A stretch of 64,000 nt of DNA from Miscanthus floridulus (Eukaryota > Streptophyta > Magnoliopsida > Poales > Poaceae), in assembly GCF_019320115.1 (NCBI RefSeq), contig NC_089588.1, positions 113,906,107-113,970,106 of the forward strand. The letters run 5' to 3'. The position numbers and the translations under genes are program-made. Below are positions 1-62,171 of this stretch, one piece after another. The notes beneath the pieces were generated by a model that was given only the letters and a program-made list of their open reading frames with translations, had not been told where the DNA came from and did no database searches. Numbering within the stretch: the stretch's first letter is position 1; the number at the start of each line of letters is the position of its first letter.

Positions 1-59
1 ATAGTATAAGTTTGTGCACTTGTACTACCTTTGGTTCCTACTTTCCTAAATACTGTTAT

Positions 60-235
60 AACTAGTGGGCACCTAGCAAATTAAGGCCAGTACTTTTTGT
101 TCGCTGCACCATGAAATTTTCAATATTATTTTATATTGTCCTATTGCAGGTTTCCAGTAGCAGCTTCCCAGAGTTCTCTCACCATATATACCACTCCACC
201 TGCATAGCATACTGCATTTCCTGCATCACAGTTAG
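60..235 (+). promoter_or_regulatory. PHAS unit 1 core promoter
   Basis: This is the first copy of a promoter block repeated nine times in the window. The TATA box is at about 184-190, followed by the shared ACCACTCCACC motif and a GCATACTGCA-like segment where transcription would be expected to start, about 30 nt downstream. The upstream shared segments (TATAACTAGTG, AAATTAAGGC, CTTTTTGTTCG) are also present. The assignment rests on repetition of the block and on its fixed place upstream of a miR2118-like site; the start site itself is inferred. Confidence 0.7.
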
Positions 236-358
236 CTTGAGAAACAATTTCCTGTGTCAGCCGGTGTTGTTTGTGTGGCGCTGACAACGAGTTACAGGTC
301 AGGACTGGGTGGCATCAGGATAAATGAATGCAAAGCATGAGTCAGATTTAGGGGCTTA
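215..358 (+). ncRNA. PHAS unit 1, 5' segment (putative 21-PHAS precursor)
   Basis: This is the 5' part of a putative non-coding phasiRNA precursor. It runs from the inferred start site past the miR2118-like site at 300-321 and breaks at 359, where a probable solo LTR is inserted. Homology to the other units resumes at 5125 with the sequence TTAATTTGAGATGTG. No ORF is shared among the copies, so the transcript is taken as non-coding. In the PHAS pathway of grasses the cleaved 3' fragment is made double-stranded and diced every 21 nt. The family assignment is strong from structure; transcription is not shown. The TATA-to-site distance of about 116 nt is the shortest of the array because part of the leader seen in other copies is missing. 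Confidence 0.7.
300..321 (+). promoter_or_regulatory. miR2118-like target site, copy 1
   Basis: Compared with the perfect complement of the grass miR2118 UUCCUGAUGCC-type sequence, this site differs at target positions 1, 6, 11 and 22. The core GGGTGGCATCAGG is intact. Predicted cleavage lies between positions 12 and 13, so the first phase would start at 312. Confidence 0.75.
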
Positions 359-3300
359 TGTAACACCCTGTGTTTTGCATCCTAATAAAAATCACAAAAA
401 AAATTGAATTTGTTAAAACTTCACAACAAATTAAAACATAAAGTAGTTTATTCACTACAAAACCATAACTAAAACCTTTTTCCAAAACCCTTGCATCAAA
501 AATACACCATATACATGCATTCATGTTTGGAATGTTTGATTGGTTCAATAATGATTTGCCCTAGAATTTATTTGGCACCAAATATTCTTCCTTGGCACTC
601 CCCTCCCAATTCCCTTGAATAATTCCTTGGAAACCCTCCTTGACATTATGTAAACCAACCACCATACAAATCTTTTATGAATCCAAATTCAAAACCATTC
701 AAATGACTTGCAAATTTAATCTGGGAAAAACAAAAGCTATTCCATAAATGGAAAATGGCCTCGGGCTCAATATTCCTCACTCCCACTTCTGGCCCGTGCC
801 GCCGCCCGACCTTCCCCTCCTCCCCTCTCCCGCGTGGGCCGCTAACCAGGACAGCCCGCACGCGTGCATGCCTGCCTCCTATCCTCTTCTCCTCCGCTTG
901 GGCTGGCCCAGTCACTCTGCCCATCCTAGCCGGAACTGCCCGTGCCCGCTCCCTCTCCCCGATCCACTGACGACGCGGCCCCACCGGAGTTGTCATCTAC
1001 CCGACGATGACAACGCAACTACCGCATCGCCATACCCGCCGCCTCGGCTTCGCCACCACCTCGTCCTGGTGCTAGAGCGGATAAGGATCGAGGACCTCGC
1101 CATGGACCCCATGAAGCTTCACAACCTCACTCCCTCTCTTCTCTCCCCATCACGCGGCAATGCCTACGGAGTCGACTGTTGCCACCGCCATGGCCGCACT
1201 CTGGCTCCTGCCTATCCCTGACCAGTTTGGATAAGCAGAATATGTGCAGCGGCTAGCACATAGCCAGACAAGCTCGGACACGTGCTAGGAAAGAAGGAAT
1301 CCGAGGCGTGGCAACGAAATATCTGCCATCGGCACCGACCTCGCTGGCCTATAAATAGGCCCGGCCGGCGAGCCCCCGCCTCAACGAGTAGCACATAAAG
1401 CTCCGCCTTAGTCCAGAACAAGCCACCTCCCTCCTAGTTCCTCCTCTCCCCTCTTCTTTTGAGCGGTAGCTCAATTTTCCCCAAATCAGGGCGTCGCGTT
1501 CGCCATTGGAGCGAGCTCCAAGCTCTCCCTCTCCAGTCAACAATAGGTCAATAGGGTTAGCTAATGAGCTCCTAAGCCCCTCCTCTACCTCCTCCGTCAC
1601 CTCAAAGCCGCTCTCCCCGCTGTGTCGCCCTGACCGACGGGAGTCGCCCACTTCCAAGCCGCCATTTCTTGCGCTCGTCGCCGGCAAGGCATGGCCAAGC
1701 TAGTCAAGCCCCGCTACGCACTCACGGACGCCCCGTGACCACACGCCACCTCTCCACATTCGCTAAAACGCTCTGTTGGAGCATCTACTCGTCACCGCGC
1801 CACTGTATTTACTCCAGCAAGCTGCCACGGACACCTCGAGCACCCACCGTCGCCACCATGTGCCCTAGACGCTACGGAATGATCTCAAGGGCATTGTCTG
1901 CCTCACTGCGTCGAGATCCGGTTCGAGACGCCACCGGTGAAGTGAATTCTGTCGAGCCCTGGGGTTTTCCCCTGTTTCCATCACCATGGCGACGTCGCCG
2001 TCTCGACGCCATTTGCCCTCTGTCGTCTCTCTTTCTCTATCAAGTGGGTCGGCACCAAAAGCCACCGCTGTTCGTCTGAGTGGAAGACGGGAGGTTGCCC
2101 ACCTGTTAGTGGTACATGGCACCGCCACGAGGACCCCATGTGGCAGCCACCGTAACTCCCTCTCCTCGCTCCCTTTCCATCTATGGACTTGGTTCACGTG
2201 ATACAGAGAAAGGAGAGATGAGTTCACGGCATAGTGCAAGGCCCGGTGCACGGCATAGTGCCGTAGGCTGACCCCGCTCGTGCTGGCCCGCACGTCAGCC
2301 TCTGACTGAAAGATAAAATGCTGCGTACACCCAAGCATTGCACACAGAGAGGTGAAAAAAGGCCCTTCCATGCATTAAAAAATTCACAGAAAATTCCTAA
2401 ATAAACTAGGTACACCCAAGAGCGTACTCAAGTTTTTCCACCCCTTTTTTGTTAACCCAATTTGCAGAAATAATTTCCAAAGTTTATTCCAAATATCTTT
2501 TTCTTATTAAAACTTTGATAAATCATATCTCCTTCATCTTAAATCCAAATCACTTGATTCTTCCACCAAAAATCTTCTAAAATCAAGCTCTATCTACCCA
2601 TATCCTTTGTCCCACTATTTGGTGCCCATTTAAATTCTAGTTTGTTTGCTTTCCATTTCTTTATTTGAATTAACACTAACATATATTCGTGTATATATAT
2701 ATTCCATACACCTACATAAAGTAATATGGTAAAACAACAAATATCGACCCCATATAGGACACCTAGACACTCAAGTATACACTTATGTATGGCTAACATT
2801 AGGAACCAAAATAACCTTAGGCGTATATATGTGTGCAAGCATGTATATGCCACTAACCCTAGCCATAACCGAAACCATCCTAACCCTACCTCCTACTTAA
2901 CCTACATCCTTTCCGTATACAAATCTACACATACATGTATATAAACTCTCCTAGTTAACCTCGCCTAACCCTGGTGGACCTATGGAAGCCAACTTAGCCA
3001 ACTATGATGACTTGGTCGGGCTTTCCCTTTCAGGTTTACATAATAGTGAACCTAATAATATGGTCTGGTTTTCCATCAAGAAACCTAGCCACACTATCAT
3101 AACCACCAAACCGAGTCATTCACGATGACTTGGTCAATCTTCCCCATCTAGGTCTACTAATAGTGAACCCTAATAATGTGGTCTGGTTTTCCATCGGATG
3201 ACCAAACCATTTCCACTTAACCCATAAAAAGCCACATCCTGATAGATGAAACCTCTTCATCTAACTCTTACTTCAAATTTACATAGTAATGATAATAATA

Positions 3301-5124
3301 AGTAAACCCACCAACAGTCAGGACCCACCTACGTAGGACCGCCTTTCTTTCTAAATTGCTTGATGGTGTATGTATCGCCTTCCTTGCTTGGTATTTTCCT
3401 TGCTTGTCGACGCTAGGCCGCATAGGATAGAAGACAATGAAACCTGGCTACGAGGACGAGAAGATCATGAATCAGGATTACGGGATAAGGATGTCATTGC
3501 CAGCAAATGGAGGCAAGTCCTAACACCCACTTACCCTTCCACCTAATACACCACATATACCCAACCCCACCTTTCCACCATTACCAAATGTCACCACTGT
3601 ACTACATAACCTCCCACCTCCCACTTCCTATTAAATACCTAATAAACATAACTTATATTCTTCATATTATTATGAGGATCAATATTGTGAGCATAAATGA
3701 TGAATACTTGTGATAAATTATGAACTTAATGATATAGATGAGCAAAGAGCATAGCTCGTGATGATAATTGAACTGGTAAACAAAACTGATTTTCCACGGG
3801 AGCGAGTGGGGGTATTTCCATGTGGTATGGACTACCATGGTAGGTTCACCTAGTGAGGGTTCCTGTTGGGAGATACTCGCTTCGGTCATATAAGGACTGG
3901 CTCATTTGCCATCTCGCATAGCCAGAATTCCATACATCCACATGTCTATATTGGTAGACTTGATCTCACACCCCGATAGATAAAAGTATAATTTCTACTA
4001 GGAGGCCAAAGTGGCAATGGAATATAAGGAGAAGACACGGATGCTAAGTGATCTTCCGTGGTCCGATTGGCATGGTTGCTAAGTGATCTTCCATGTAAAG
4101 CCTCTTGGTTTGGTCATGTTCGAGCCCTTACTTATTATTAACTGGATGATGTGGCATCATCCGGATTATTGAATTGGATGATGTGGTATCATCCAAAGCT
4201 TTGTGTGTTTCCAACCCCTGAGAATCCATGGTGAAATTATATGGACATCTAAGGTCGCGTACTTTTTGGGTATGGGGTCTCGTTAGACCTGTCTAAGCCT
4301 GACGATGGTGTCGGACTGTGTCTATCATGTGGGGAAATGTGTACAACCTCTGCAGAGTGTATTGAATCTGTTTGAATAGCCATGTTGCTGGAATGGGCAA
4401 TCGCTGGGATGAGGTTATAAATGATTAGACTCTTTTATGTGTAATAAAACTAGAGCAATCTGGTAAGTTGTAATCAATTAATCTGGTAAGTAACAACCTA
4501 TAAACCCCGGTAACTGGTGAGAATGGTTAATACTCTCCCAGGGCCCAAACTCCCTTATAAATAACACAACTCTCACTAAGTACAACTCTACCACCATAAA
4601 CCACCTTCACCCAATCCTACCTTACCTCCACCACCATAAACCACCACCAAATATAGCCTTCACCAACTGCCATCCACCTTACCCCAATAGATAGGCCTTG
4701 TTGAGTACTTTATGTACTCAATCCCCTCCATTCTATGTTTTTAGGAGTAAAGCTACAGGAACACATGCAAGGATGGAGCTATCGAGGACTACAAAGGTAA
4801 TATAACAGGAGTATCCCCCGAAGACAAAGTAGTATGGCTACGCAAGAGAGCTACGCTAGGGCTACCACGATTAAGATATATGATTGAGCTTAAGGATAGG
4901 GTTTACGTCCGCACTCCAAGTTGCCTATAGGAATGGAGCCATGACATCTTAGGACCGCTGTGAAAGAACTCCGATAATCTATATAAGGCTACTATGTAAC
5001 ATGTTTTCCCCGTTAGGAATAAAAGTATGGTTTTTTATATCAATCTTGTTCAACTGTGCGTGTCAGCTACTGATCCAGGGACCGATACACGATGCATAGA
5101 GGACCCTAAACTAGGGGCCTGACA
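359..5124. mobile_element. Probable solo LTR of a Gypsy-type retrotransposon (~4.8 kb)
   Basis: The segment starts TGTAACACCC and ends GGGCCTGACA (TG...CA). It interrupts PHAS unit 1 between GCTTA (354-358) and TCTTA (5125-5129), an imperfect 5-bp duplication. I see no reverse transcriptase, integrase or gag and no second copy of the ends, so a solo LTR left by recombination fits best. LTRs this long are known in the Del/Tekay chromovirus lineage, but the lineage is inferred only from length and end sequence. A GC-rich stretch at about 760-1420 contains CTATAAATAGG at about 1350, a likely LTR promoter. A ~75-bp motif (GATGACTTGGTC ... GGTCTGGTTTTCCATC) occurs twice, at about 3005-3080 and 3124-3200. 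ORFs in the GC-rich part look like compositional artefacts. Confidence 0.6.
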
Positions 5125-5457
5125 TCTTAGTACTTAATTTGAGATGTGATAGAATAAAGCTTCTCTTTCGAGGAAGGGAAGGTTTGGTACAAAAGAGCCC
5201 CGAACCTGATTGCCGTTGGTGGAATTGCCTAACCCATTCGTCAACAATTGACACGAAGTAGATGCCAGTGGTTCCGTGAGAGAAACCGGTCGGTGGCGCA
5301 AGCTCACCTGCTACTCATGGCTGCTGGCAACTAGGAGCTTGTTGACGCATTCAAGCAGTCTGTTAGAAGCAAATGGTATGTAATGTCTAGAAGAAGGACT
5401 AGTCTAGGATGGCGTGGTTTCTCGAGGGTGCACTGGAGGCAAAGGATTAGAAGAGGT
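5125..5457 (+). ncRNA. PHAS unit 1, middle segment
   Basis: This continues unit 1 after the solo LTR. It carries the block shared with the other units downstream of the miR2118 site: a GAGATGTGATAGAATAAAGC-like stretch, then CCTGATTGCC and TTGGTGGAATTGCC. The segment ends at the 5-bp duplication GAGGT (5453-5457), where a Copia element is inserted. It is non-coding, and no function is visible other than as precursor body. Confidence 0.65.
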
Positions 5458-5938
5458 TGTTGGCCCACAGGATCACCGGCTCAAGCGAGTGAAGCACTCG
5501 CCGGTCTTGCCGAGCACCCGCTAGTGTTGTCGAGCACCCACTAGCCGTGCTGACCATGAACAGGCGTTGTCCGTCCCACGCACTATGTCTGGAGCTATAA
5601 GAAGAAGAGAGAATAGAGCAAGCACGCACAATACAAGACACCAGCGTTGGCCAAAGCCCTGTCTGTGAGATGGAAATCTAAACTCTCTTTACTAAGTTGC
5701 CTTGTATGTCTATTTATATAACTCTATCTATCTAGTCCTAGTACAACTCATATGCTATAACAGTAACTAGATAACACTGACAGGGCTGACTCTGCGTCGG
5801 CCACTGCATGTTCCTACAGTGCTGCAGGTGAGCCGTGCGGCGCCTGCACCTGTAGCGGCTACAGTATCACAGCACGGGGCCCTTCGACGCCGCCTTCCCT
5901 TGCTGTGTTCACACAAGGTAATAGTAGATTAGCTAACA
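5458..5938 (-). repeat. Copia A left (3') LTR
   Basis: The LTR begins TGTTGGCCCACAGG and ends ATTAGCTAACA. A minus-strand TATA-like box (TATATAAATAG read on the minus strand) lies near 5712-5722. It is paired with 10520-10981 and carries about 19 bp more than that copy. Confidence 0.93.
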
Positions 5939-7453
5939 GCAACAATCTTCCCCTAATCCTACTACTAACCCTTGTACCCCTTCCATCCCGATCACCTCCT
6001 TTATCTCCGTGAGTCGAAGTCGTCCGAGCGGCTTGGTGAGGATGTCCGCGAGTTGCCGACCAGTTTTGACGAACTCAATGACGATCTGCCCTCCATCGAC
6101 ACAGTCCCTAAGGAAGTGGAACTTTACATCGATGTGTTTGCTCTGGTCGTGCAGAACCAGATTCTTCATGAGGGCAATGGTGGGCTAGTTGTCCACCATC
6201 AGTGCTGGTGGGTGAGCTTTCATGCCAGTCAGCTCACCCAGCAGCCGACGTAGCCACACAACTTGGCATGCCGCTGTGGCTGCCGCTACGTACTCTGCCT
6301 CGTACGTAGATAGCGCCACCACCTTTTGTTTCAGCGACAGCCATGAAATTGGGGCCGACCTGAGGAAGACGAGCACGCTAGAGGTGCTCCGTCGTCCGTC
6401 GATGTCCCTCGCCATGTCAGCATCGCTGAACACAGTGAGCTGCAGCCTACTCCTGCTGGTCTTGGGAAAGATGATCCCTTGATCCACTGTCCCTTTGACA
6501 TAGCGTAGTAGCCGCTTCACCGCAGCCCAGGGATCCTCCCTAGGATCCTCCATGAAGCGACTGACGTAGCCCACGGTGAACGCAATGTCTGGCCTTGTGT
6601 GGACTAGGTAGCGCAGACCGCCGACGATGCTCCGGTAGAGTGTTGCATCCACCTTCGCCGTGGTGCTGGCCTTTGTCAGCTTTAGCCGCTCGTCCATTGG
6701 AGTCACGCATGGCTTGCACTCAGCCATGCCGCTCCGCTCCAACAGCTTGGAGGCATACGCGCTCTGACCGAGCATGAGTTCCTCCTTCCCCTGTCTCACC
6801 TCGACGCCGAGGTAGTAGGAGAGTGCGCCGAGATTGCTCATTCGAAAACGAGCCGCCATCTCGTGCTTGAAGCTGTTGATGTCCTCCGTGCGCGCACCGG
6901 TGACAATCAAATCGTCCACATACACGCTGACGACAAGCTCCTCCTTCCCCCATCGCCACGTGTAGAGCGCATGCTCGGTTGCGCACCATTGAAACCCAAG
7001 CTCGCCTAGCGTGGCATCAAGCTTGGCATTCCATGCTCTGGGGGCCTGCCGCAGCCCGTAGAGCGCCTTGCGCAGTCGGAGCACCCTATGCTCCTCTCCC
7101 TTGATGGCAAAACCTAGGGGTTGCCTGACAAAGACCATTTCCGCCAGTTCACCGTTGAGGAAGGCCGATTTAACGTCCAAGTGATGGACGCGCCAGTCCT
7201 TTGCTGCTACCAAGGCAAGTAGCAAACGGATCGACTCCATGCGCGCTACTGGCGCAAAGACATCCTCGAAGTCAATGCCCTCACGTTGAACAAAGCCTCG
7301 GGCGATGAGGCGCGCCTTCTGCTTGACAATGGCGCTAAGCTCATCCCTTTTGACCTTATACACCCACTTCAGGCTGATCGGACGGCATCCTAGAGGTGGA
7401 TCGACGAGCTGCCAAGTCTCATTTTCCTCGATCACCTTCATCTCCTCCAGCAT
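5933..7453 (-). pseudogene. Copia A reverse transcriptase and RNase H
   Basis: This is the C-terminal half of the Copia polyprotein, which copies element RNA into DNA and removes the RNA strand. On the minus strand from 7453 it carries the Copia RT start (LKWVYKVKRD), the HHLDVKSAFLNGEL motif, the LRKALYGLRQAPRAWN motif and the catalytic YVDD in SVYVDDLIVTG. RNase H follows, with VFSDAD, DGRRSTSS and STYEAEYVAA. A stop at 6185-6187 separates the last part (HIDVKFHFLRD ... ADILTKPL, 5933-6169), which is still in recognisable order. A further stop near 7465 separates this segment from the integrase side. The RT core is intact over about 420 codons, but the polyprotein as a whole is broken. Confidence 0.9.
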
Positions 7454-7690
7454 CGCCCGTCGCTAGGTTCCATCACGCTCGGCTAGCGCGAACATGGGTG
7501 GTTCCTCTGCACTGACGAGTAGCAGCTCTGCGTCGTTGAGCAGCCTGCCCGCCAGACCTAAGGGACCTATGCCACCGACGATGTCGTCCAGCCTATGGAA
7601 CCGCACCTCCTCACCTTTGTGGTAGGCGTCCACGAACTCAGTGATGTCACTTGGAGGTGAGGCGAACTCGATCGGTGTCGATGGAGTTCC

Positions 7691-8902
7691 CTATTCTATC
7701 GGAGTGCTTGGTACAGCACCTTGAGTGCTTGGCACTACTTCTAGACTGCTCGTCATAACTCCTGTAGTGTTTGGCCACACTGTAGGAGTGTCCAGCCTCA
7801 GTCTTGGAGTGGTCGACACCACTACAAGACGTCTTGGCTCCGCCACGGGAGTGCTTGGCACCTGTCTAGAAGTGGTTGCCACCACTGCAGAACCTCTCGG
7901 CACCACTCTTGGCGTGCTTAGCATCCCTCTAGAAGTGCATGATACTCCTCCCGGAGTGCTCGGCATCCCTCCCGAAGTGCTCGGCACTGCCCCAGGAGTG
8001 CTCGACTCTACCGTCGGAGTGCTCGGCGCTCCTCCCAGAGTGCTTGGCACCTCTTCCCTAGCGTCTCCACCACCATGGATGACCAAGTGCTCGACGACAA
8101 AGGTGTTGGTGAAGTCGCCAGCTTCCCCCATGCTCGGACTGCTCCAGTCCCAAGACGCCTTCTCGTCGAACACGACGTCGCGCGAGACAAGCACTTTGTC
8201 TCCACGTGGGTCGTAGAGCCGGTACGCCTTGGTACCCTCCGTATAGCCCAGGAACACCATCGGTGTGCTCCTGTCCTCTAGCTTGGTGAGGTTCGGCTTT
8301 GTCTTCCTAACGTGGCTGATGCAACCGAATGTCCAGAGGAATGACACGTTCAGCTTGCACTCATACCAAGCTTCGAACGACGTCTTGCCCGTTAGGGCCT
8401 TGGTCGGAGCGCGGTTGAGGATGAACACCGCCATGGTCACCGCCACTCCCCGGAACTTTGTCGGCATGCCTTTGGCATTCATCATGGATCGGGCCATGCT
8501 AACCACCGTCTGGTTCCGTCGCTCCACCATGCCATTCTGTTGTGGTGAGTACGGTGCGGTGTGGTGTTGCCCCACACCTTGATCCACGCAGTATGTAGCG
8601 AACTCCATCGAAGTGAATTCACCACCGCGATCAGTCCTCAGCACGCAGAGCTTCTTGCGGCTCTCGGCCTCCGCACGTGTCTTGAACTTCTTGATCGCTG
8701 CCGCCGCTTCATCCTTGCTCGTTAGGAGTTGCAGCCACATGTAGCGACTGCAATCGTCCATGAGCTGGAGGAAGTACCACCGACCACCGCATGTAGCAGG
8801 CGTGATCGGCCTATAGAGGTCACCGTGAATGAGCTCGAGAGCTTCCTCCGCGCGATACTTGGCCGCCTTTGGGAAAGGTAGCCTCCTCTGCTTCTCGGCC
8901 AA
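7691..8902 (-). pseudogene. Copia A integrase with Pro/Ser/Thr-rich tail
   Basis: The catalytic core of the Copia integrase is recognisable: ELIHGDLYRPI, YFLQLMDDCSRYMWL, VLRTDRGGEFTS and YSPQQNGMVERRNQT supply the D, D and E of the DDE triad. FGCISHVRK and DRSTPMVFLGYTEG, typical of the C-terminal region, follow. The last ~115 residues (about 7691-8040) are an unusual run of short PSTP, PSTPGG and STPRVVP-like repeats linking integrase to reverse transcriptase. A TGA at 8948-8950 lies just upstream and splits it from the zinc-binding pre-integrase region (WHAQFGHLSFDTL, about 8945-9050). Confidence 0.9.
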
Positions 8903-8944
8903 GCAGCTGTCACACAGCTCACCTCCGTGCTTGATGTGGGGTAG

Positions 8945-10390
8945 CCCTCAAACCATCTTTCCCTGCCGACCAAGCGTGTCAAAGCTGAGATGTCCAAACT
9001 GGGCATGCCACATCCACGGTTCCTCGGAGTGCCTTGCCGTCAGGCACACCGGCTGCTCTACCTTCAGGTCAAGCAGGTACAACCGGTTCAGGGACCTCTT
9101 CACCTTGGCAATAAGTCGCTGCTCCCGGTCCCTGATCCTAAGGATGCCGTCCTTGATCAGTACTTCGCTGCCACGCTCATCCAGCTGACCAATGTTGATG
9201 ATGCTAGAACGTAGCTGCGGGATGTAGTATACATCCGTTAGCGCGCGGTGCTCCCCGTTCTAGCATTTGAAGATGATGGTGCCGCGCCCTTGGATAGCCA
9301 CCCTTGAGCTGTCACCAAACTTCACCGTACCGGTAACATCACCGTCGAGCTCGGAGAAGGATTCCTTGGAGCCCATCATGTGGTTGCTGGCACCAGAGTC
9401 CAGATACCACCGCTGCTCCTAGTTGGCGCCCACACGCCCGAGGTGAACTTGGGCGCGCGGTTCATTGAGGTTGATGGTTTTCAGGTCCCTCCCAGGTCCT
9501 TCCACTGTCGTCGCCTCTTCCTTCTCCTCGGCCTCGATGTCGTGTAGTGCACAGAACGTCGCCATCAGGATAGTGGCCTCATCCTCATCATCGGCTTGCG
9601 CCAGGTGAGCCTGAACCTTCTTCTCCTGCTTGCGATTTGGGCACTCCCGTGCCTAATGGCCCATCTTCCTGCAACACCGACAGACGTTGGGGTCGACCTA
9701 CTTCTTCTTCGAAGAAGCCCTGCCGCGGTGCTTGCCCTTTCCACCATGACTGGAGGAGGCTGCCTTCCTGGAGTTCCTCTGAGCAGTCCACTCCTCTTCC
9801 GTCAGTAGGAGTTTCCCACTGTCCTTCGTTGTTGTCGCCTGCTCCAAGCGCTCGTCCATCACCCGCAGACGGCCTGTCACATCCTCAATGGTGAGGGTGG
9901 ACAAGTCCAGCATCGTCCCTATGAAGAGAGCGATATGGATGTACTTTGCCGGAACGGAGTGGAGGTACTTGGAGACCACCTCCTCTTCGTCGATGGTGAC
10001 GTCGTGGCTCTTCAGCTTGCTGATGAGCATCTGCAGGTGGAGGGAGAAGTCCTCCACCATTTCAATATCCTTGAACTTGAGGATAGCGTACTCCTGCTTC
10101 AGAAGCTGGGCCATCGCCTTCTTTGCGCGGTCGGAACCGACGCGCATCGCCGTAATAGCCTCCCACACCTCCTTAGCCGAGCTCTTCGTCCCCAACGGCT
10201 CCCTATACTCCACCGGTACAGCAGGTAGGATAGCCTCCAACGCTGACATGTCATCCTCCTCATTGTCGGTGCCCTTGTCAACAGCATTACAGAGCCGTCG
10301 GGCTCTTAGCTTGACCTTCATGGTCACCGACCACTCTTCATAGTTGGTGTGAGTCAGTGTCGGCCAACTGGTGCCGCTGACCTCCCGCAC
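8945..10390 (-). pseudogene. Copia A gag, protease and pre-integrase region
   Basis: Gag starts at 10390 on the minus strand ([20 protein letters not shown]), with the UBN2-type gag body typical of plant Copia ([26 protein letters not shown]) up to about 9698. A zinc-knuckle region follows in a shifted frame at about 9600-9690. The aspartic protease is visible at about 9390-9420 as WYLDSGASNHM. The pre-integrase domain lies at about 8945-9060. Several stops and frame changes between 9698 and 8945 mean no single protein can be made. Confidence 0.85.
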
Positions 10391-10519
10391 CGTGCGAACA
10401 ACAACCTCCCCTCATGGCTGGGCAGCCACAGCAGTGCCACTACTGTCGCCCATCTCCGAACCGCCCGTCATCGCCATCGGTTAGACTGGCGACGGCACTT
10501 GTACGGCTCTGATACCACT

Positions 10520-10981
10520 TGTTCGCCCACAGGATCACCGGCTAAGGTGAGTGAAGCACTCGCTGGTCTTGCCGAGCACCTGCTAGTGTTGCCGAGCACC
10601 CACTAGCCGTGCCGACCACGAACAGGCGTTGTCCGTCCCACGCACTATGTCTGGAGCTATAAGATGAAGGGAGAATAGAGCAAGCACGCACAATACAAGA
10701 CACCAGCGTTGGCCGAAGCCCTGTCTGTGAGATGACAAATCTGAACTCTCTTTACTGAGTTGCCGTGTATGTCTATTTATACAACTCTATCTATCTAGTC
10801 CTCGTACAGCCCATATGTTGTAACAGGGCTGACTCTGCGCCGGCCACTGCATGTTCCTACAGTGCTGCAGGTGAGCCGTGCGGCGCCTGCACCTGCAGCG
10901 GCTACAGTATCACAGCAGGGGGCCTTTCGGCGCCGCCTTCCCTAGCTGTGTTCATACAAGGTAACAGTAGATTAGCTAACA
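10520..10981 (-). repeat. Copia A right (5') LTR
   Basis: The LTR begins TGTTCGCCCACAGG and ends ATTAGCTAACA. It pairs with 5458-5938 and lies directly beside the initiator tRNA-Met primer-binding site, which makes it the 5' LTR of the minus-strand element. Confidence 0.93.
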
Positions 10982-12790: not shown

Positions 12791-12829
12791 CACTTGTACT
12801 ATCTTGAGTGCCCACGTTCTTTTAATGTT

Positions 12830-14957: not shown

Positions 14958-14972
14958 TTTGGTACCTACATG

Positions 14973-48496: not shown

Positions 48497-48501
48497 TACG
48501 G

Positions 48502-53668: not shown

Positions 53669-53689
53669 TACTTCTACTCACCTATGGTA

Positions 53690-53885
53690 CCCACATGGCT
53701 TCAGTTTTATATGTAGGGAACTCCTAGGAAATTAAAGACCACTACTTTTTGTTTGTTGCTCCCAAAGTTTTTTGCAATAATTTACTAAATTAATCCGTTG
53801 CAGATTTCAGGTAGCAGCTTGCCACCAAAGTCTGCCCCTATATATACCACTCCACCATACTGCGTGCATCACCATTAGCTATTGT
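53690..53885 (+). promoter_or_regulatory. PHAS unit 6 core promoter
   Basis: TATA (CTATATATA) is at 53838-53846, then CCACTCCACCATACTGCGTG. It follows the Gypsy B LTR end by only about 170 bp. The distal part (GGTACCCACATGGCTT) matches unit 8. Confidence 0.72.
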
Positions 53886-54030
53886 AGAAATTGCTATCAC
53901 GTACTACTATTATGTCTCACAGCTATATCAGCGTCATGGCACTGATGAAGATATGCTTTTAGTCTGTGTCTGCCTGCTGCTGCTAGACGGTGCTGTTCGT
54001 TTGTTGCTGGCCAAGGACTGAAATAGAGAT

Positions 54031-54052
54031 TAGGACTGGGTGACAACAGGAA
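54031..54052 (+). promoter_or_regulatory. miR2118-like target site, copy 6
   Basis: The site differs at target positions 6, 11, 13 and 16. It belongs to the GGGTGAC class. The first phase would start at 54043. Confidence 0.68.
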
Positions 54053-54861
54053 ATATGCACTGAAGGCCTCAATGAGATTAAGGAGTTCTCTTCAAAAAAA
54101 TAAGATTAAGGAGTCTAGTACTCCACTTTAGACTGAGAGGATAAGGTTTCTTCCCGACCTACAATTGCGAGCCTCTAGCCTCTTGCACTGCACGGCCTAT
54201 TGGATACCGAGGCCTTGGTTGCCAATTGTTGCCATTGGTTCAGCTTCCGGTTCCAGGGCTAGGACATGAGTGCTGTGCTTGAAAGAAGCTGGACGCACAA
54301 GTTGACAGCGACAATTGGGAAACAGTAAAACTGTGCTAACGAGCTCGCTAACCGATGTGAGTATGCGATCGGGTCCAGAGCAGGCAATAGAGGGCGCCAG
54401 ATGACAAGAGGAAAAGGTAGTGTCAGCGCAATGCACCAACCACGAGAACACCGCGAGCTGCGGTGGGCATATTAGAGAAGAGCAGATCTGCATCATCAGC
54501 CACTAGCTGTCGACGTTTGGGTTTAGCTGCTTGCCTTTGCGCTTGAGTATATTCCTATAAATGCCCTAGTCAGCATCGTGATAATAAAACATGATCCATA
54601 TTTACATATAGCCTGTTTTTTTAGCGTGTACTGGATGTGCCACAGTAAGAGGAACAAGGAGAACCCATGCCTGCATGGTGGATTGAATCACTTACTTGAT
54701 GGCCACGGCCCATGGTATTCTTATATGCCCCAAGTACATGCGCCTCGAAAGATTACCACGGGAACCGGACAACCTCATCTTCGTTGGCCTCATCGTTAAG
54801 GGCCCATGGCCAACCCTAGCTGCCACTCCCTAACAAATGAGGGTGCCAACAGACAGTCCTA

Positions 54862-55112
54862 TAGTCTAGTGGTTACAAGAGCCTCAATAGCACCTGAGGT
54901 CCTATGTTCGACTCCATGTGGGAGCGAATATTCAAGGATTTAAGCGCTTTGTACTTTTAGTGTAGGTGAAGTTCCTGTCGACCGCGAGGTGCCTGTGTGA
55001 TGACTTCGTCAATCTTGTCTTGAGGATGTGCCGCGAGGTGCTCATTTGGGTATGGTTTGTGTGCGTGCGTTGTGAGCGTCTGCGTTGTAGTGTGTAATCT
55101 CAAAAAGAAATT
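54862..55112 (+). mobile_element. tRNA-derived SINE (about 251 bp)
   Basis: A Pol III A box (TAGTCTAGTGG, 54862-54872) and a B box (GTTCGACTC, 54906-54914) form a tRNA-like head. The tail ends GTGTGTAATCTCAAAAAG. Flanking 10-bp duplications GACAGTCCTA (54852-54861) and GACAGTTCTA (55113-55122) differ by one base. The tail shares CTGCGTTGTA.TGTGTAAT with the piece at 58799-58946. Confidence 0.85.
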
Positions 55113-55619
55113 GACAGTTCTAGCATCGCCAACCTGCCAAGACTCCCTGTGCTTGAGGCCCTTGAGGACCTCCTGGGATGACGATTAGTTGGCGGCAGTG
55201 TTTATGGCCAAGGCAGTGACCACGGACATCAAGCTGCTCAATCGGGCTTAACATAGGAGATCCCGATCTGTTGATGGCAAATGGAAGCAGGGAAAGAGGA
55301 GGCATCGGCGAGAGCATTGCACGCTGATCTTGGCCACACCTTAATTGGCTGTTCTCAGCAAGGGATTTTATACCTTTTAGGCTTTTGCTAGTTTTCAAAT
55401 ACTAATGAAATTTAAAATTATTTCATTAAAAAAATTGCTTGCATACAGTTTTAGAACTAATATTATTACATTTCATACATGGACAGATTATTTTTTTATA
55501 TTATATGATGGGCCTTGTTCTCCGAAATCTCTAGATCAGCCATATGGTCGTTTTGGACTCTTTTTCTAAAATAAAACAGAATGTTGTGCAGTACTTATAT
55601 TACATATGGTGCGTCCATG

Positions 55620-55810
55620 CCATTAATAATGTTATAACTAGTGAGCTCCAAGCAAATTGAGGCCACTACGTTTTGTTCGTTGCACCCTGAATTTTCCAAT
55701 AATTTATTATATTGCTTGGTTGCGGATTTCTAGTAGCAGTTTCCCAAAGACCTCTCACTATATATACCAATAATCCATCAGCATACTGCAGTGTTTCCAG
55801 CATCACCATT
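55620..55810 (+). promoter_or_regulatory. PHAS unit 7 core promoter
   Basis: TATA (CTATATATA) is at 55758-55766, followed by CCAATAATCCATCAGCATACTGCAG. It is a near-consensus upstream block (TATAACTAGTGAGCTCC, AAATTGAGGCCACTACG, TGCACCCTGAATTTTCCAAT). Confidence 0.73.
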
Positions 55811-55995
55811 AGCCCGCCTAACAGTATAAGAGAGTGTTGATATTGCTTGCCACGTAGTACTACGTACTATTATTTCTCGCTGCTGTATTAGTCTCATGAC
55901 ACTGAAATGAGGAGAGGCTTCTGGTCCCTGTGTGATTGTTCGGCTGGCCAGTGTTGTTTCAATGGCCCAGGCAAGACAACGTATGAAATACAGAT

Positions 55996-56017
55996 TAGGA
56001 GTGGGTGACATCAGGAA
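55996..56017 (+). promoter_or_regulatory. miR2118-like target site, copy 7
   Basis: The site differs only at target positions 6, 11 and 13, and the position-6 change allows a G:U pair. It belongs to the GGGTGAC class. The first phase would start at 56008. Confidence 0.75.
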
Positions 56018-56859
56018 AAATACAGATTCAAGATCTCAGATGATAAGGCTTCCTCCCTGCACGAAAAAGTCTGGTAGAGAGCAACCCAGAACCTGATTGC
56101 CATTGGTGGAATTTGCCCATGTCTTTCCACAACCACTGCACCACAATATGGATCGCCTGGGCTTGATTGGTACTAGGTGCCACTAGTTGTGATTGCTGTA
56201 GGAGAAACCAGCGGCGCAAGCTCCATGGCTAGTCATGTCCATCGGCGACATTGAGCAAGCTGATGCATGCGAGCAGTCCAGAAGAAGCAAGGAAGGCGTG
56301 CTTTGTCCTTGTCAAGCGTGCACAGGAGGACAAGGAAGAGGTGGAGCTTGGCACCAAGGATATGTAATATATATACTGTATGCTTGGTTCCTATCTGATA
56401 GAGCTATGCCTGATCAAATATTTCTGCAATATCCTATTGCATATCGATGGCTTGGTTGGCACTTGAAGTACGTGTACTCGTGCAGGTAATCATATGTGAA
56501 TGAACACAAAGTCATTGTAGAATTATGCTTGCAACATGTAATCTGTATGGTAATAAAAATGAACATCAGGTATACTCGATAGATGATCCACATCAGATTG
56601 TCTAGAGCATCAAAGTATTAATATTATTACAGAATCAGATTATTTTGGGCAAGTAAACCCTGGGTAAAATTGTAAACATCTAGCAGGACACGTGTAGTTC
56701 CGGATATGAAACATAAAGGTTTCTTCATGTTAGATGTTGGAGATTAAAGGAAAGAATGGTTTTTGCATCAGTCTATATAGGAACAGTTTTGTATCATTAT
56801 TGAAGAGGGATAAACACATCTGTCATCAGTATGTCTTGAGTTTGAGTCAGGGAAGTCTT

Positions 56860-57255
56860 CACTACTACAAAACAATTTTAGGAGACACCTTGCTATTTTA
56901 AGACGCGGACAGCTGATTTACCAAGACACCTAAAAAGCCACCGCCTCCGAAAAACGATTGTCAAATCCGGCCTCTGTTAATAAGCGAAGCCCACAACCGG
57001 CCCATTTATCTCTCCCATCAAAACCCTATATATCTCACAGATGAGGATGCTATCCTCTCTACCACACAACATAGCCCCTGCATTTTTCCCTGCCATACGG
57101 TCTGCCGCTCCCTTGTCCACCTCTCCTATCCCTCCACACCTTCCTTCTTTTGCTCTACGCCTCTACCAAGGCCAGCAGATCATCACTGTCGGCGGTTGCG
57201 AGGATGCATGGCAGCGAGGAAGACGTGCACCAGAGACAGCATTGAGGAGTTACTA
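56860..57255. mobile_element. CACTA-type element fragment (one end)
   Basis: The left end CACTACTACAAAA matches the CACTA element at 32756, and the sequence inside (GGAGACACC, CCGCCTCCG, CCTATATAT) has the same style. I could not find the matching TAGTAGTG end before 57720, so it is truncated or rearranged. Confidence 0.55.
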
Positions 57256-57749
57256 ATATTTTTCTATGCTTCCCTACACAAATATGTTATAATATATAGC
57301 GTCAGCAATTAAAACACTCATACCTATCAAAATTAGCAACAGATATATAACAATAAATAGACATATATACTTGTTGACTCACCGCAATCATGGCAATTCT
57401 AATTAGGCTTGTTTGGAACATGGTAATTCCATAGTTAAAACACATATGTAAAAAGTTCCCTCGGTTCCATGTACGTTTTTAGTTCTGTCATCATACAACT
57501 TTACTGACTGATGTGAACCTCCTATATAATTATATCTACGGTGGTTAAATAATAAAAGTTGGAGATGCCGATAACATGCATGAATAAGTCTGTTCTCACC
57601 ATGAGATAACTTTTGGTCCGTACATATGTTCTTTTATCTTTTTAAAAACTCTTTCTCTTCAAATAAAAATAAAAAATATTATTAAAAGAAGAAGTGCAGT
57701 ACTTGTACTTTTTAAAAAAATGTTGTACTTGTATGTATGTATGGTACCC

Positions 57750-57935
57750 ATGTGGCTTGAATTTTATATGTACGGAACTTCTAGAAAATTAAAGACTATT
57801 ACTTTTTATTTTTTGCTCCCTTAGTTTTCTGTAATAATTTACAAATTGCTCTATTGCAGATTCCTATTAGCAGTTTGCGAAACTCCTCGCCCTGTATATA
57901 CTACTCCAGCATACTGCAAGCTTCACCGTTGGCCA
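57750..57935 (+). promoter_or_regulatory. PHAS unit 8 core promoter
   Basis: The TATA-like box is TGTATATACT at about 57893-57902, followed by ACTCCAGCATACTGCAAG. It is weaker than in the other copies: the eight-base CTATATAT core is changed to TGTATATA. Confidence 0.65.
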
Positions 57936-58093
57936 TTGTTGAAATTGTTTGCACGACTACTATTATGTGTCACAGCTATATCAGTGTCACAACAATGATG
58001 AGGAGATGCTTTTAACTTGGTCTGTCTGGCTGCTGCGACGAGAGCTAGCTGGTGTTGTTCATTTGTTGATGGCCAAGGAGTGAAAATAGTGAT

Positions 58094-58115
58094 TAGGACT
58101 GGGTGACACTAGGAA
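58094..58115 (+). promoter_or_regulatory. miR2118-like target site, copy 8
   Basis: The site differs at target positions 6, 11, 13, 16 and 17. Positions 16-17 face the miRNA seed, so this is the weakest predicted site. The first phase would start at 58106. Confidence 0.58.
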
Positions 58116-58798
58116 ATATGCACTGAAAGCCTCAATGAGAACTAGGTATATACTACTTAAAATGAGATCTGAGATAATATGGTTTCTTCCCACATAAAAA
58201 ACTCTTGGAGAGACCAACCGCGAACCTGCCTGCCTCTAGCCTCCAGAATTGCGCTGCCCATTTCATATCGACCAAGTACAATGGAGTGAGATCCAGGGCA
58301 CAGTGACAATGACCTGGCTGATGCAAGCGAGAGGTCAAGGGAAAGCAATCCATGACATTGTTGTTGGTTGGAATGAACAGGAGGAAAAGGTAGTGGCAAC
58401 CGAATTCAGCATCAACAGCAAGAACGCGGTGAGCTACAACAGGCATATATTATAGAATAGGTGCACCATCAGGCACTTGCTGATGACGTCTGGCCATTTT
58501 AGCTGCTTGTATGCCTCAGCACATGAGTGTTCGTATAAACGCCCGGGTTAGCATCGTGATAATTAATCACGATCCATATTTGCATTACAAATAGCCTCTA
58601 TCATTTTTTTTTTGCAAATAAACCTCAATCTGATCCAAATATTTACAAACATAATCATTGTTCGGTCAAAAGGGTGAATTTTAGGCATGGAGAAGGGAAT
58701 GCACGCAAGCTAACTGGGATGTCGACGACAACTCAGTTGAGTTAATTCGCTCTCTCATATGTGCAGGGGAATAAAAAAAATAGGAAAGCAAGCCGTTA

Positions 58799-58946
58799 AC
58801 CTGTGGTGACTTCGTCAATCTCGAGGATGTGCCGGCCCAATCTTCGAAGATGCTCATAGGGGTAGGGTTTGCTTGCGTGTGTTCATAGGAGTCAGTGCGT
58901 GTGCGCTGTAAGTGTCTGCGTTGTACTGTGTAATTCGCAAAAAACA
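58799..58946 (+). mobile_element. 5'-truncated SINE tail
   Basis: The segment shares GTGACTTCGTCAATCT, GAGGATGTGCC and TCTGCGTTGTACTGTGTAAT with the tail of the SINE at 54862-55112 and ends in an A-rich run. The tRNA-like head is absent. Confidence 0.7.
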
Positions 58947-59829
58947 ATCAGCTTAAAATTGTTATATGGAGCGATGTAGATGAGAAGCCCCCAACTGACA
59001 GCTACAAAATGTTTTGCACCAGTTTGCGCTCAGTTGGTCACTGAATACATGGTGAACAAGACTTTGCCTACAGTCGACAATGAAAAATGGTGCGTGTGCG
59101 CAGTAATAGCTGTATACAGAGCATGTCAAGAGCAGGACATTACTTCAACAGGTGCCTCCATGGTGGCCAGCTAAGAGATGTAAACAGAGACTTCATAGGC
59201 TGTGTTGACGTGGGGCCGGCTATACCACTGCAAAACTGACTTTTACTTGTGTACTTTTTTTTCACTAGCAATTAACAATTATAATAAACTACAGCGGTAA
59301 ACGGGTAAACAACTCCGAAGACAAGTAAAAATGTTTTTCAGAGGTGACTACAATGTCCACCCTGCTGCTGAGCAAGCTCCCAAGCCTGCCATGGAGAGTG
59401 TCATGCAGGCATCATGGAGCCATCCCGCTGTTGAGCACATCGTGCAGCCCCACCTTTACCCATGGCATGACAGGAACTCCTACATTTGTTGGATATGCCT
59501 GTACTGGATGTGTCACGACAGAAAGAGCTAGCTCACTTGGTGGCCAAGTCCAGGTTATATTACCTTTGTAGCTTTTCGCTAGTTTTCAATTACTAGTGAA
59601 TTCGAAAATTATTTCATACTAATATTGCTTTTTAATTAGTAATATTTGAAGACATGGTTATTTTATATGAAGGGCGTCCCGTTTAATTTTGGCCTGGTCC
59701 TCGAAAATCTCTAGACCGGCCATGGTTGTTTTCTCTATCTATGGACTCTTTTCTAATATAAAATAGAAGTTTGACTTTTGTCTAATATAAAATAGAAGCT
59801 TGTACAGTACTTCTGCTACCTTTGGTGCC

Positions 59830-60030
59830 TACATGCCTTTAATAATGTCATAACTAGTGCGCTCTTAGCAAATTAAGGCCACCACTTTTTGTTGGCTGCA
59901 CTCTGAAATTTTCAATAATTTGTTACATTGCTCCATTAATTGAAGATTTCTGGTAGCAGCTAGCCAATGTTCTCTCACTATATATACCACTCCGTCAGCA
60001 TACTGCTGTTTCCTTATGCATCAGCATTAA
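59830..60030 (+). promoter_or_regulatory. PHAS unit 9 core promoter
   Basis: TATA (CTATATATA) is at 59978-59986, followed by CCACTCCGTCAGCATACTGC. The upstream block is complete (TCATAACTAGTGCGCTC, AAATTAAGGCCACCACTTT, TGCACTCTGAAATTTTCAA). Confidence 0.73.
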
Positions 60031-61690
60031 CCAGAGTTACAGTGTAAGACAGAGTAGTATTGATATATATTGCTTGTGACATGGTATATTACTATTATGT
60101 CCCATGACACTCAGATGAGATGTTTTGGTCTCTGTCTGGCTATACCTATCCCAGCTGCTCTGCTAGCCGGGGTTGTTTGAGTGGCCCAGACAACCAGTGA
60201 ATAACAGATCAGGACTGGGTGGCATTAGGAATGTGATATTTAGGGGCTTAGTACGTAATTTGAGATATGAGCAGATGAGGCTCCTTCCACAAGCAAACAA
60301 GCATGGTAGACATGAGACTGGAACCAGATTGGCATTGGTGGAATTGCCCAACTGTTTAATCATCCACTGCACCCGCACATAGACTAGCTGGGCTTGATTG
60401 CAGCTAGATGGCAGTAGTTCCTATCGTGCTAGGAGAAATCGGTGGCGCAAGCTTGGTAGATACGAGCTAGCTGATGCAATCGAGAAGTCCAGAAGAGGCA
60501 AGGATGGTGTGGTTGCCCAGCACAAAGGAACAAGTGGCTCTTGGCGCGAACGTAATATACTGCATGCAGGGTTCCTGTCTGATCAATTCTTTGTCTAATA
60601 GCCTATGACAGAACAGAATGTAACACCATGATAAATCGATATCTCGTTTAGAGAAGTAGATTTCTGAAGATGTTTTCCGAATATCCTACTTGAAGTCTAT
60701 GCAGGTAGGAGGCCGGAAAGCCAGTACCGGTCAGGATTATTCCTGTGCCTGCAAAATCAAATGTACATGAACACAGAGTCACTATAGTCTTATGCTTACA
60801 GCTTTTAATCTTTGACCATAGGAAATCCATGTTTACTCGATAGATGATATTTGTGAACCGCCTTATGATCATGTAGTGAACCAAAATCTCTGACCACAGG
60901 ACTACGTCACATTGTCTAGAAAATCAAAGCATCAATATTTTTACTGTATCGGATTATTTTAGAGAAGTGGCACTCTTGTGTGTCTCATCATGCAGATGAG
61001 GGATGTCATTCCATATACTATAAAACCAACCGGATATGAAACACAGTATTAATTCTACCTTCTATAATTAAAATAATGTTTCTTCCCTCCTCTAATCAGC
61101 CTAGAACAGCCTTTTACTGGTAGTAGTACAGTGCAGAGTTTATGACTCTTCTGTTACCTGCTGATAGTGCGAGAGGTTCATTCCAGAAACTATGAATTTC
61201 AGAGAGAGAATCTTTTGGTTCGACATTCTTTTCAGCAAATTGCCTCTGGGTAAAATTGTTTCTGATCATCACATTAGATTGAAAACATATATAGCAGAAA
61301 ATGTGTAGTTGGGATGTGAAGCATGGAGGTTTAATTTATTCATGTTAGATGTTGCATTTTATATTAAGGTAAAGGATAGAATGGTTTTCGCATCATTCTA
61401 CACGCGAACGGTTTTGCATCAGTCTAGACGCAACATGTGCCTGCTGCCAAGCTACATGTTTTCTTCCATCGCATCACTGCAACTACGGTTACCAAATCAA
61501 TGTGGATGCTGCGGTTAGATGAAAACTGACTAATAAACATAAGAAATTATGATAAGAAAAAATATAAATGATATATATGGTGTGGAAATTCATACACAAC
61601 ATGGCAATCTTTGGGTCAAATGATTAACACTTTACCATACAGTCATCCAGCAAACACAGCATGATGACTTCATCGACGTACAAGTAAAGA
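60010..61690 (+). ncRNA. PHAS unit 9 (putative 21-PHAS precursor)
   Basis: The miR2118-like site is at 60210-60231. GGCATTGGTGGAATTGCCCAAC is at about 60330-60352 and the GAGAAGTAGATTTCTGAAG block at about 60650-60668. A 3' body at 60940-61000 (TATCGGATTATTTT, GAAGTGGCACT, TCTCATCATGCA) is shared with unit 2. The sequence runs on into a second site (copy 10) with no promoter block between, so both sites could lie in one transcript. Confidence 0.7.
60210..60231 (+). promoter_or_regulatory. miR2118-like target site, copy 9
   Basis: The site differs at target positions 1, 6, 11 and 17, and position 17 (T) allows a G:U pair with miRNA nucleotide 6. It belongs to the GGGTGGC class. The first phase would start at 60222. 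Confidence 0.7.
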
Positions 61691-62171
61691 ACTAGACACT
61701 GCTGAGGAGTAACGACGAACAAAACAGAGATTAGGAACGGGTGACATCAGGAAAACTGTATTGAGTATCTGATTGGGACGCATGGTATTACTAGTACTTT
61801 ATTTCGGATCTGACCGAATAAGGATTCTTCGGGCCACAAAAATTTGGTAGAGAGGCTTGTTTCCCATCAAATGTCTACAGCAGTACACCACGGAGTGGAT
61901 TGGATGTCCTCATCCCACAAACTGTGCAGTTCTAGCAGTTTTGTAATTATCAGCATGATCAATCTGTGTTGTATGATTACCAAAATATTATAGGCAATTA
62001 TCATCATCTACAATCGATTGGATGCCACCTTAAGTTTCTTGGTGTAAAAGTAAAAGCTTAAGACGTTTTTAATGCTCATAGTTAGGAATTGATTTATTTT
62101 TAGGGGCCACCTCAAGCTGGCCTAAGGGCAAAATGATACTCTTATCTAGAATTTCCAATGCTAAATGACAC
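61691..62171 (+). ncRNA. PHAS unit 10 (promoter-less copy)
   Basis: This partial unit starts shortly before the miR2118-like site at 61732-61753, with the shared ACAGAGATTAGGAA approach. A downstream block follows (GGATCTGACCGAATAAGGATTCTTC, shortened here) like that of the other units. The TATA block found in the other copies is absent in the preceding 500 bp. It ends where a chromovirus LTR begins at 62172. Confidence 0.55.
61732..61753 (+). promoter_or_regulatory. miR2118-like target site, copy 10
   Basis: The site differs at target positions 7, 11 and 13 only. It belongs to the GGGTGAC class. The first phase would start at 61744. Confidence 0.68.

What the first reader, a model, noticed from the sequence alone, without database searches (positions are those of the whole stretch)
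1..62171. Tandem cluster of about ten putative miR2118-triggered 21-PHAS loci hidden under transposons
Seen: ten same-strand sites with the core GGGTG(G/A)CA....AGGA, nine of them 116-238 nt downstream of a near-identical TATA promoter block (CTATATATACCACTCCACC). Non-coding bodies follow, sharing ordered blocks (GGATAAGGCTT, TTGGTGGAATTGCC, GAGAAGTAGATTTCTGAA) and a common 3' block. Known: in grasses, clusters of non-coding loci with one 22-nt miR2118 site each make 21-nt reproductive phasiRNAs in premeiotic anthers. Inference: this window is such a cluster, about 2 kb per unit before insertions. ORF-based annotation would miss it entirely.
Basis: partly seen in the sequence, partly recalled or inferred. 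Interest (0 to 1): 0.95.

Follow-up and report, generated by a model that had tools for sequence, protein, structure and literature searches.

The report
Tandem phasiRNA-precursor cluster in a grass
This stretch of what is very likely a grass chromosome carries ten same-strand sites complementary to the microRNA miR2118, nine of them in related repeat units with a shared TATA block, and is likely a known kind of non-coding gene cluster predicted to make small RNAs in young anthers, split up by transposon insertions.

Summary
Ten same-strand 22-nt miR2118-complementary sites lie at the stated places; the other strand has none at the same cut-off, and a Markov null gives 0.35. Nine sit 118-238 nt downstream of a shared TATA block. 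Those units are diverged tandem paralogues, and in them the site and the TATA block are the two most conserved 22-column windows.

The genome is held (2.68 Gb, very likely Miscanthus floridulus). It has two tandem MIR2118-like arrays; 4 of 33 listed members were folded and all 4 form hairpins. Against 17 variants from those arrays the ten sites are the window's ten best + strand matches. The promoter block has 20 matches, all in three clusters on C9/C10, so it is not a dispersed transposon. The ten-site order recurs inverted at C9:135.64-135.68 Mb, where a 19.4-kb step is 2.4 kb.

Verdict: a 21-PHAS supercluster, a new member of a known kind. Transcription, cleavage and phasing were not tested. 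Unusual: all ten sites mismatch at miRNA position 12, near the cut; only 3 of 10 score 4 or less by a weighted rule, and recent copies show no extra constraint on the sites.

The parts
10..236 (+). Promoter block of unit 1 (TATA block at 182)
   Evidence: BLAST to other units 69-80%; TATA block 1 mismatch
300..321 (+). miR2118 site, unit 1
   Evidence: Best weighted score 4.5 against the genome's MIR2118 variants
322..12783 (+). Body of unit 1 in pieces: to about 358, then 5126-5456 and 10981-12780; the rest is inserted DNA
   Evidence: 358 and 5126 correspond to adjoining positions 13192 and 13189 of unit 2; the second break is a copia-type insert flanked by GAGGT
5457..10982 (-). Copia-type LTR retrotransposon inserted in unit 1
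   Evidence: LTR pair 89.9% identical, GAGGT on both sides; RVT_2, rve, Retrotran_gag_2
12784..14961 (+). Unit 2 (limits approximate): promoter block, leader, body and 3' block
13134..13155 (+). miR2118 site, unit 2; four extra bases in its 5' half
   Evidence: Score 6.0; extra GTAC
15040..32164 (.). Retroelement DNA between units 2 and 3 (RT-bearing element about 15.0-19.5 kb, LINE-like by my reading; LTR pair 20300-20893 / 31571-32164)
   Evidence: RVT_1 at 18609-19538; LTR pair 94.1%; step of 19437 here is 2400 in the inverted copy
32193..33770 (+). Unit 3 (limits approximate)
32571..32592 (+). miR2118 site, unit 3
   Evidence: Score 5.5
33775..35600 (+). Unit 4 (limits approximate)
34037..34058 (+). 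miR2118 site, unit 4
   Evidence: Score 5.5
35581..35960 (+). Unit 5: promoter block, leader, start of body; the rest not recognised
35903..35924 (+). miR2118 site, unit 5
   Evidence: Score 4.0, 2 mismatches to canonical miR2118
42375..48497 (.). LTR element between units 5 and 6
   Evidence: LTR pair 95.8%, TACGG on both sides; RVT_2
53669..55530 (+). Unit 6 (limits approximate)
   Evidence: recent copies +45 kb and at C9:135.65 Mb
54031..54052 (+). miR2118 site, unit 6
   Evidence: Score 5.5
55553..57700 (+). Unit 7 (limits approximate)
55996..56017 (+). miR2118 site, unit 7; unchanged in the three other copies examined
   Evidence: Score 3.0, best in window; 0 of 22 changes in 3 of 3 copies
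57720..59773 (+). Unit 8 (limits approximate)
58094..58115 (+). miR2118 site, unit 8 (weak)
   Evidence: Score 6.0
59770..61421 (+). Unit 9 (limits approximate)
   Evidence: copy around C9:135639044, 98.66%
60210..60231 (+). miR2118 site, unit 9
   Evidence: Score 4.5
61732..61753 (+). miR2118 site 10; no promoter block; similarity to other units limited to the site and its near surroundings
   Evidence: Score 3.5; BLAST 33-34 nt to units 6 and 7; profile match 61712-61791
61754..62172 (+). Sequence after site 10, to the point where similarity to the inverted copy ends
   Evidence: 98.66% over window 59347-62172

Best explanation
Ten same-strand miR2118-complementary sites, nine of them in paralogous tandem units that share a promoter block, mark what is likely a cluster of non-coding precursors of 21-nt reproductive phasiRNAs, grown by local duplication and split apart by retrotransposon insertions. 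Shown: the sites, the shared promoter and TATA block (9 of 10), absence of coding signal in the units tested, MIR2118-like hairpins in the same genome, confinement of the promoter block to three clusters, and a second copy of the ten-site order. Inferred from the established grass pathway (recalled): the TATA block starts a polyadenylated non-coding transcript in premeiotic anthers; a 22-nt miR2118 in an Argonaute cuts it between site positions 12 and 13; SGS3 and RDR6 make the 3' piece double-stranded; DCL4 dices it into 21-nt phasiRNAs in register from the cut. The bodies diverge, which would diversify the small RNAs, while promoter and site stay recognisable. The five sites with A at target position 13 would be served best by the MIR2118 variant with U at position 10.
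For: - 10 sites on one strand at score <=8, 0 on the other; null 0.35.
- The ten best + strand matches to 17 MIR2118 variants of the same genome are exactly these sites, scores 3.0-6.0; next + 6.5, best - 7.5.
- miRNA positions 2-5, 8, 9, 11, 14, 15, 18 and 20 match the canonical target in 10 of 10 sites.
- In nine aligned units the site (mean pairwise identity 0.80) and the TATA block (0.74) are the top two non-overlapping windows of 608. Around all ten sites: 0.84 (four insert columns of unit 2 left out) against at most 0.595 for any window outside.
- MIR2118-like arrays at C11:46.78-46.92 and C12:46.18-46.26 Mb: 33 listed members with <=2 mismatches, 13 and 20; 4 folded, 4 hairpins with the miRNA on the 3' arm.
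- 250 genome places within 3 mismatches of miR2118, genes and sites together, against 3 for the reversed control.
- Promoter block: 20 of 20 matches in three clusters on C9/C10.
- No Pfam match above cut-off in 9 + strand frames of 3 units; no ORF clearly longer than shuffles in 6 units.
- Published pattern: rice 21-PHAS in large clusters, one 24-kb example 'interlaced with repetitive sequences' (PMC5100018, passages).
Against: - No RNA evidence of any kind; phasing, slicing and anther expression untested.
- All ten sites mismatch all 17 listed MIR2118 variants at miRNA position 12, near the cut. Weighted, 3 of 10 score <=4 and 2 of 10 <4, the cut-off of the wheat study (PMC7057497). All ten are <=5 unweighted, the Brachypodium rule (PMC4053937), but 3 other places in the window pass that rule too.
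- Between recent copies the sites change about as fast as the rest: 4/198 against 402/14841, p=0.82, nine sites; the tenth, 13134, was not in that count and differs by a 4-nt insertion. Sites 54031 and 58094 changed in copies.
- No trace of the register in base composition: position 19 is not C-enriched.
- Site 10 has no promoter block; units 1 and 5 are broken by insertions.
Confidence: 0.88

Rival explanations
1. A decayed remnant: the array was a 21-PHAS cluster, but transposon insertions and site mutations have silenced most units, so few or none now make phasiRNAs.
For: Units 1 and 5 are broken by insertions; site 13134 has four extra bases; sites 54031 and 58094 changed in recent copies; sites change as fast as the background between recent copies; position-12 mismatch in all ten.
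Against: Sites 55996, 61732, 35903, 60210 and 300 still score 3.0-4.5; 55996 is unchanged in 3 of 3 other copies although one of them differs at 60 of 549 body positions; 5 of 10 sites are identical in the inverted copy.
Confidence: 0.2
2. A family of transposons or satellite-like repeats that happens to contain a miR2118-like word.
For: Repeated units with shared blocks in a transposon-rich region.
Against: Promoter block in 20 of 20 cases, and a leader/site probe in 15 of 15, confined to clusters on C9/C10 of a 2.68-Gb genome (the search skips very common words, and the unit-body search did not complete); no transposase or RT domain in the three unit bodies scanned; the miRNA site is the conservation peak.
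Confidence: 0.03
3. A decayed tandem family of protein-coding genes, for example NLR genes whose P-loop codons carry the miR2118 site, as in eudicots.
For: miR2118/482 targets NBS-LRR genes in eudicots (PMC4788661, passages).
Against: No NB-ARC or other domain above cut-off in nine frames of three units; ORFs not clearly longer than shuffles in six units; the site lies only 118-238 nt from the TATA block in nine units.
Confidence: 0.03

Closest known systems
Grass reproductive 21-PHAS loci and superclusters (rice: Johnson et al. 2009, recalled and seen cited in PMC4788661; maize W23: 463 loci, PMC11127045, passages; Brachypodium: PMC4053937, passages)
   Same: No coding signal found, clustered, one 22-nt miR2118 site per unit near the predicted 5' end, interlaced with repeats; MIR2118-like genes in tandem arrays elsewhere in the genome
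   Different: Here nine units are recognisable paralogues that share a promoter/TATA block and body blocks besides the site, and every site carries a position-12 mismatch. No small-RNA data.
Reproductive 21-PHAS loci of wild strawberry triggered by miR11308 (PMC8368212, passages)
   Same: Mostly predicted non-coding precursors with one conserved trigger site
   Different: There the trigger site is reported as the only conserved region in the alignment of the precursors; here promoter and body blocks are shared too
miR2118/482-NLR phasiRNA loci of eudicots
   Same: Same microRNA family
   Different: Those are protein-coding; no NLR domain found in the three units scanned here

Membership tests
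Grass miR2118-triggered reproductive 21-PHAS locus | A 22-nt site complementary to miR2118 | tested here: met
   10 of 10 unweighted <=5 against the genome's own MIR2118 variants, above background; by weighted score only 3 of 10 are <=4
Grass miR2118-triggered reproductive 21-PHAS locus | Non-coding precursor | tested here: met
   No domain above cut-off in 3 units x 3 frames; no ORF clearly longer than shuffles in 6 units, lowest fraction 0.067. The other units were not tested.
Grass miR2118-triggered reproductive 21-PHAS locus | Occurrence in genomic clusters or superclusters | tested here: met
   Three clusters on C9/C10, ten sites in this window
Grass miR2118-triggered reproductive 21-PHAS locus | A 22-nt miR2118 gene in the same genome | tested here: met
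   Arrays on C11 and C12; 4 of 33 listed members folded, 4 of 4 hairpins. Expression not tested.
Grass miR2118-triggered reproductive 21-PHAS locus | Pol II transcription, capped and polyadenylated | tested here: inconclusive
   TATA block in 9 of 10; no RNA data
Grass miR2118-triggered reproductive 21-PHAS locus | Cleavage between target positions 12 and 13 | not testable with these tools
   Needs degradome reads; the position-12 mismatch makes this worth checking
Grass miR2118-triggered reproductive 21-PHAS locus | 21-nt phased siRNAs in premeiotic anthers | not testable with these tools
   Needs small-RNA reads; a composition test of the predicted registers showed no C enrichment at position 19
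Dispersed transposon family | Copies at unrelated sites across the genome | tested here: not met
   20 of 20 and 15 of 15 matches in clusters on C9/C10; body search not answered
NLR gene family | NB-ARC domain with the P-loop at the site | tested here: not met
   No match in nine + strand frames of three units

The most novel reading that the evidence does not exclude
This is a lineage-specific 21-PHAS supercluster whose founding unit fixed a mismatch at miRNA position 12, and whose sites then split into two classes at target position 13 (G or A, five each) served by different MIR2118 members (C10 or U10), so that one cluster is read by two microRNA sub-populations through weakened slicing.
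Probability: 0.2. Interest if true: 0.62.

Novelty: new member of a known kind. Interest (0 to 1): 0.42.

Why it matters
It shows that a likely 21-PHAS cluster can be found and dissected from DNA alone: sites, shared promoter, MIR2118-like arrays and duplication history all come from one genome. Because nine units are true paralogues, promoter and trigger site can be compared against diverging bodies, which is useful for asking what keeps such loci active. The position-12 mismatch in all ten sites gives a direct test of how much slicing phasiRNA triggering needs. In rice, loss of MIR2118 genes causes sterility (PMC7305157, abstract) and mutations in a few 21-PHAS loci cause conditional male sterility (PMC11127045, passage), so such clusters matter for breeding.

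Tried and rejected
- Rfam search of the window: no match at gathering score, so no MIR2118 gene is recognised inside the window.
- miR2275 and miR482 as triggers: their best scores are 7.5 and above, scattered over both strands and not on the ten sites.
- Register composition test (C at position 19, U at 20, after PMC11127045): no enrichment there. A at position 12 (z 4.98 at n=71) and a few others deviate, but the units are related, so these are not independent. Inconclusive.
- Extra constraint on the site between recent copies: none seen (4/198 against 402/14841). The count covers nine sites and includes some transposon DNA on the other side; 13134 was not in it. Over all ten, 7 of 220 site positions differ, 3 of them from the insertion in 13134. 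The constraint claim therefore rests on the old paralogues only.
- Indels in multiples of 21 downstream of the site: lengths between copies run from 1 to 31 and none is 21 (the C10 copy of unit 8 aligns poorly beyond the leader). Register is not preserved.
- A MIR2118 variant with A at position 12 that would pair with the fixed T: none among the C11/C12 array places listed within 3 mismatches of such a query. More distant members would not be seen.
- C14 places resembling miR2118 (58262472, 68536929) do not fold as hairpins, so they were not counted as miRNA genes.
- Sequence-word searches of papers for the site, for an A12 miRNA and for the TATA block gave no paper on phasiRNA that bears them, judged by title: one search listed 20 of 81, one search listed 1 of 1; one search found the canonical miR2118 forms in grass papers, and an A12 word only in a lung-cancer paper. 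The Miscanthus/phasiRNA search listed 20 of 248; none of those titles is on Miscanthus phasiRNAs. This does not show that the locus is unpublished.
Full report
WHAT THE SEQUENCE SHOWS. Scored as targets of miR2118 (UUCCUGAUGCCUCCCAUUCCUA, printed as osa-miR2118f in PMC7847607), the window has ten places at <=8 on the + strand and none on the - strand; 400 third-order Markov sequences average 0.35 per strand. Nine sites follow a TATA block (CTATATATACCACTCCACC, 0-4 mismatches) at 118-238 nt; the tenth (61732) does not.

UNITS. BLAST of each unit against the window shows one ordered family: promoter block, leader, site, body blocks and, in four cases, a 3' block, at about 65-80% identity. Site 10 matches units 6 and 7 only over 33-34 nt; a profile extends this to 61712-61791. 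In a 9-unit alignment of promoter to site, the miR2118 site (mean pairwise identity 0.80) and the TATA block (0.74) are the best two non-overlapping windows of 608. Around all ten sites the site scores 0.84, leaving out four insert columns of unit 2, and the best window outside it 0.595. Three units scanned in nine frames have no Pfam domain above cut-off (one chance-level match, E=0.19), and six units have no ORF clearly longer than shuffles (fractions 0.067-0.65).

TRANSPOSONS. Unit 1 is split: its sequence up to about 358 and from 5126 corresponds to adjoining positions of unit 2, and a copia-type element with 89.9% identical LTRs and GAGGT on both sides sits at 5457-10982. Retroelement DNA lies between units 2 and 3 and units 5 and 6.

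THE GENOME. The window is C9:113906107-113970106 of a 2,684,536,002-base assembly in 2420 contigs. The size, the similar lengths of C9 and C10, the parallel arrays on C11 and C12 and a C8 longer than 220 Mb fit Miscanthus floridulus as described in PMC8238680 (2.68 Gb, 19 pseudochromosomes, homoeologous pairs, a fused Chr8; passages). This identification is inference.

MIR2118 IN THE SAME GENOME. A pattern search with up to 3 mismatches finds 250 places, genes and target sites together, against 3 for the reversed control; the first 100 were listed. Exact or near-exact copies form two arrays, C11:46.78-46.92 Mb (13 listed with <=2 mismatches) and C12:46.18-46.26 Mb (20 listed), all on the - strand. 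Four of these 33 were fetched and folded; all four give hairpins with the miRNA on the 3' arm. Scored against the 17 distinct sequences among the 33, the ten sites are the ten best + strand places of the window (3.0-6.0; next 6.5; best on the - strand 7.5). Array members with 3 mismatches to the canonical form fell outside the list and were not used.

THE PECULIAR MISMATCH. All ten sites have T at target position 11, a U:U mismatch at miRNA position 12 for all 17 variants. No array place listed within 3 mismatches of a query with A there has it. Five sites have A at target position 13. The array member with U at position 10 (C12:46229032, hairpin) pairs with that A and is the best variant for four of the five; 58094 scores best with another. 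With 22-nt miRNAs the cut falls between target positions 12 and 13 (recalled), so the position-12 mismatch lies close to it. By the Brachypodium rule (unweighted <=5, PMC4053937, passages) 10 of 10 pass, together with 3 non-site places (2 on +, 1 on -). By a weighted score 3 of 10 are <=4 and 2 of 10 are <4, the cut-off of the wheat study (PMC7057497, passages).

NOT A DISPERSED REPEAT. The promoter block of unit 9 has 20 matches in the genome, all in C9:113.9-114.0, C9:135.60-135.71 and C10:121.01-121.11 Mb. A leader/site probe from unit 6 gives 15 of 15 in the same clusters, extended to C9:113.82 Mb. The 18 places within 1 mismatch of the cluster's own site type lie there too; at 2-3 mismatches there are others elsewhere (120 in all against 24 for the control). 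These searches skip very common words, and a search with the unit body did not complete.

DUPLICATION HISTORY. The ten sites have ten counterparts in the same order, inverted, at C9:135637522-135677342; 5 of 10 are identical. The last two match at 98.66% over 2826 nt with the same 1522-nt spacing. Units 6-8 also recur about 45-52 kb downstream. Whether the inverted copy is a duplication or a misplaced haplotype cannot be told here. Between recent copies nine sites are not more conserved than the rest (4/198 against 402/14841), and the tenth differs by an insertion, although site 55996 is unchanged in three other copies, one of which differs at 60 of 549 body positions.

MECHANISM AND STANDING. 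The best reading is the known grass pathway: Pol II non-coding transcript, cut by a 22-nt miR2118, copied by RDR6, diced by DCL4 into 21-nt phased siRNAs in premeiotic anthers. The anatomy is shown; every RNA step is inferred from established knowledge. Rice 21-PHAS loci lie in clusters and superclusters (PMC4788661, passages) and can be interlaced with repeats (PMC5100018, passages), and maize W23 has 463 such loci (PMC11127045, passages). So this is a new member of a known kind. Less ordinary are the shared promoter of still recognisable paralogues and the position-12 mismatch in all ten sites.

Noticed in passing
60210-61753: Two miR2118 sites 1522 nt apart without a promoter block between them, with the same spacing in the inverted copy (C9:135639044 and 135637522); they could lie on one two-site transcript.
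   Followed up: partly
L040 (C12:46229000-46229180): A MIR2118 member with U at position 10 that folds as a hairpin (20 of 22 paired) and pairs with the A at target position 13 of five window sites.
   Followed up: partly
L041 (C14:68536800-68537130) and C14/C15 67.9-73.7 Mb: Fifteen listed places with one identical miR2118-like sequence; the one tested does not fold as a hairpin. Perhaps target sites of other 21-PHAS clusters.
   Followed up: partly
13134-13155: The unit 2 site carries four extra bases (GTAC) not seen at its counterpart C9:135667414, which has the cluster consensus.
   Followed up: yes
L019, about position 4906 (C9:113974906): A unit copy broken off inside its site, where the duplicate at C9:114025407 runs on.
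   Followed up: no
L018 position 5666 (C9:113905666) and L026 position 180 (C9:114040180): Further miR2118-like places (weighted scores 6.5 and 6.0) near the cluster without recognised unit sequence.
   Followed up: no
25765-26135: A tandem array of about 67-nt units inside the LTR element between units 2 and 3.
   Followed up: no
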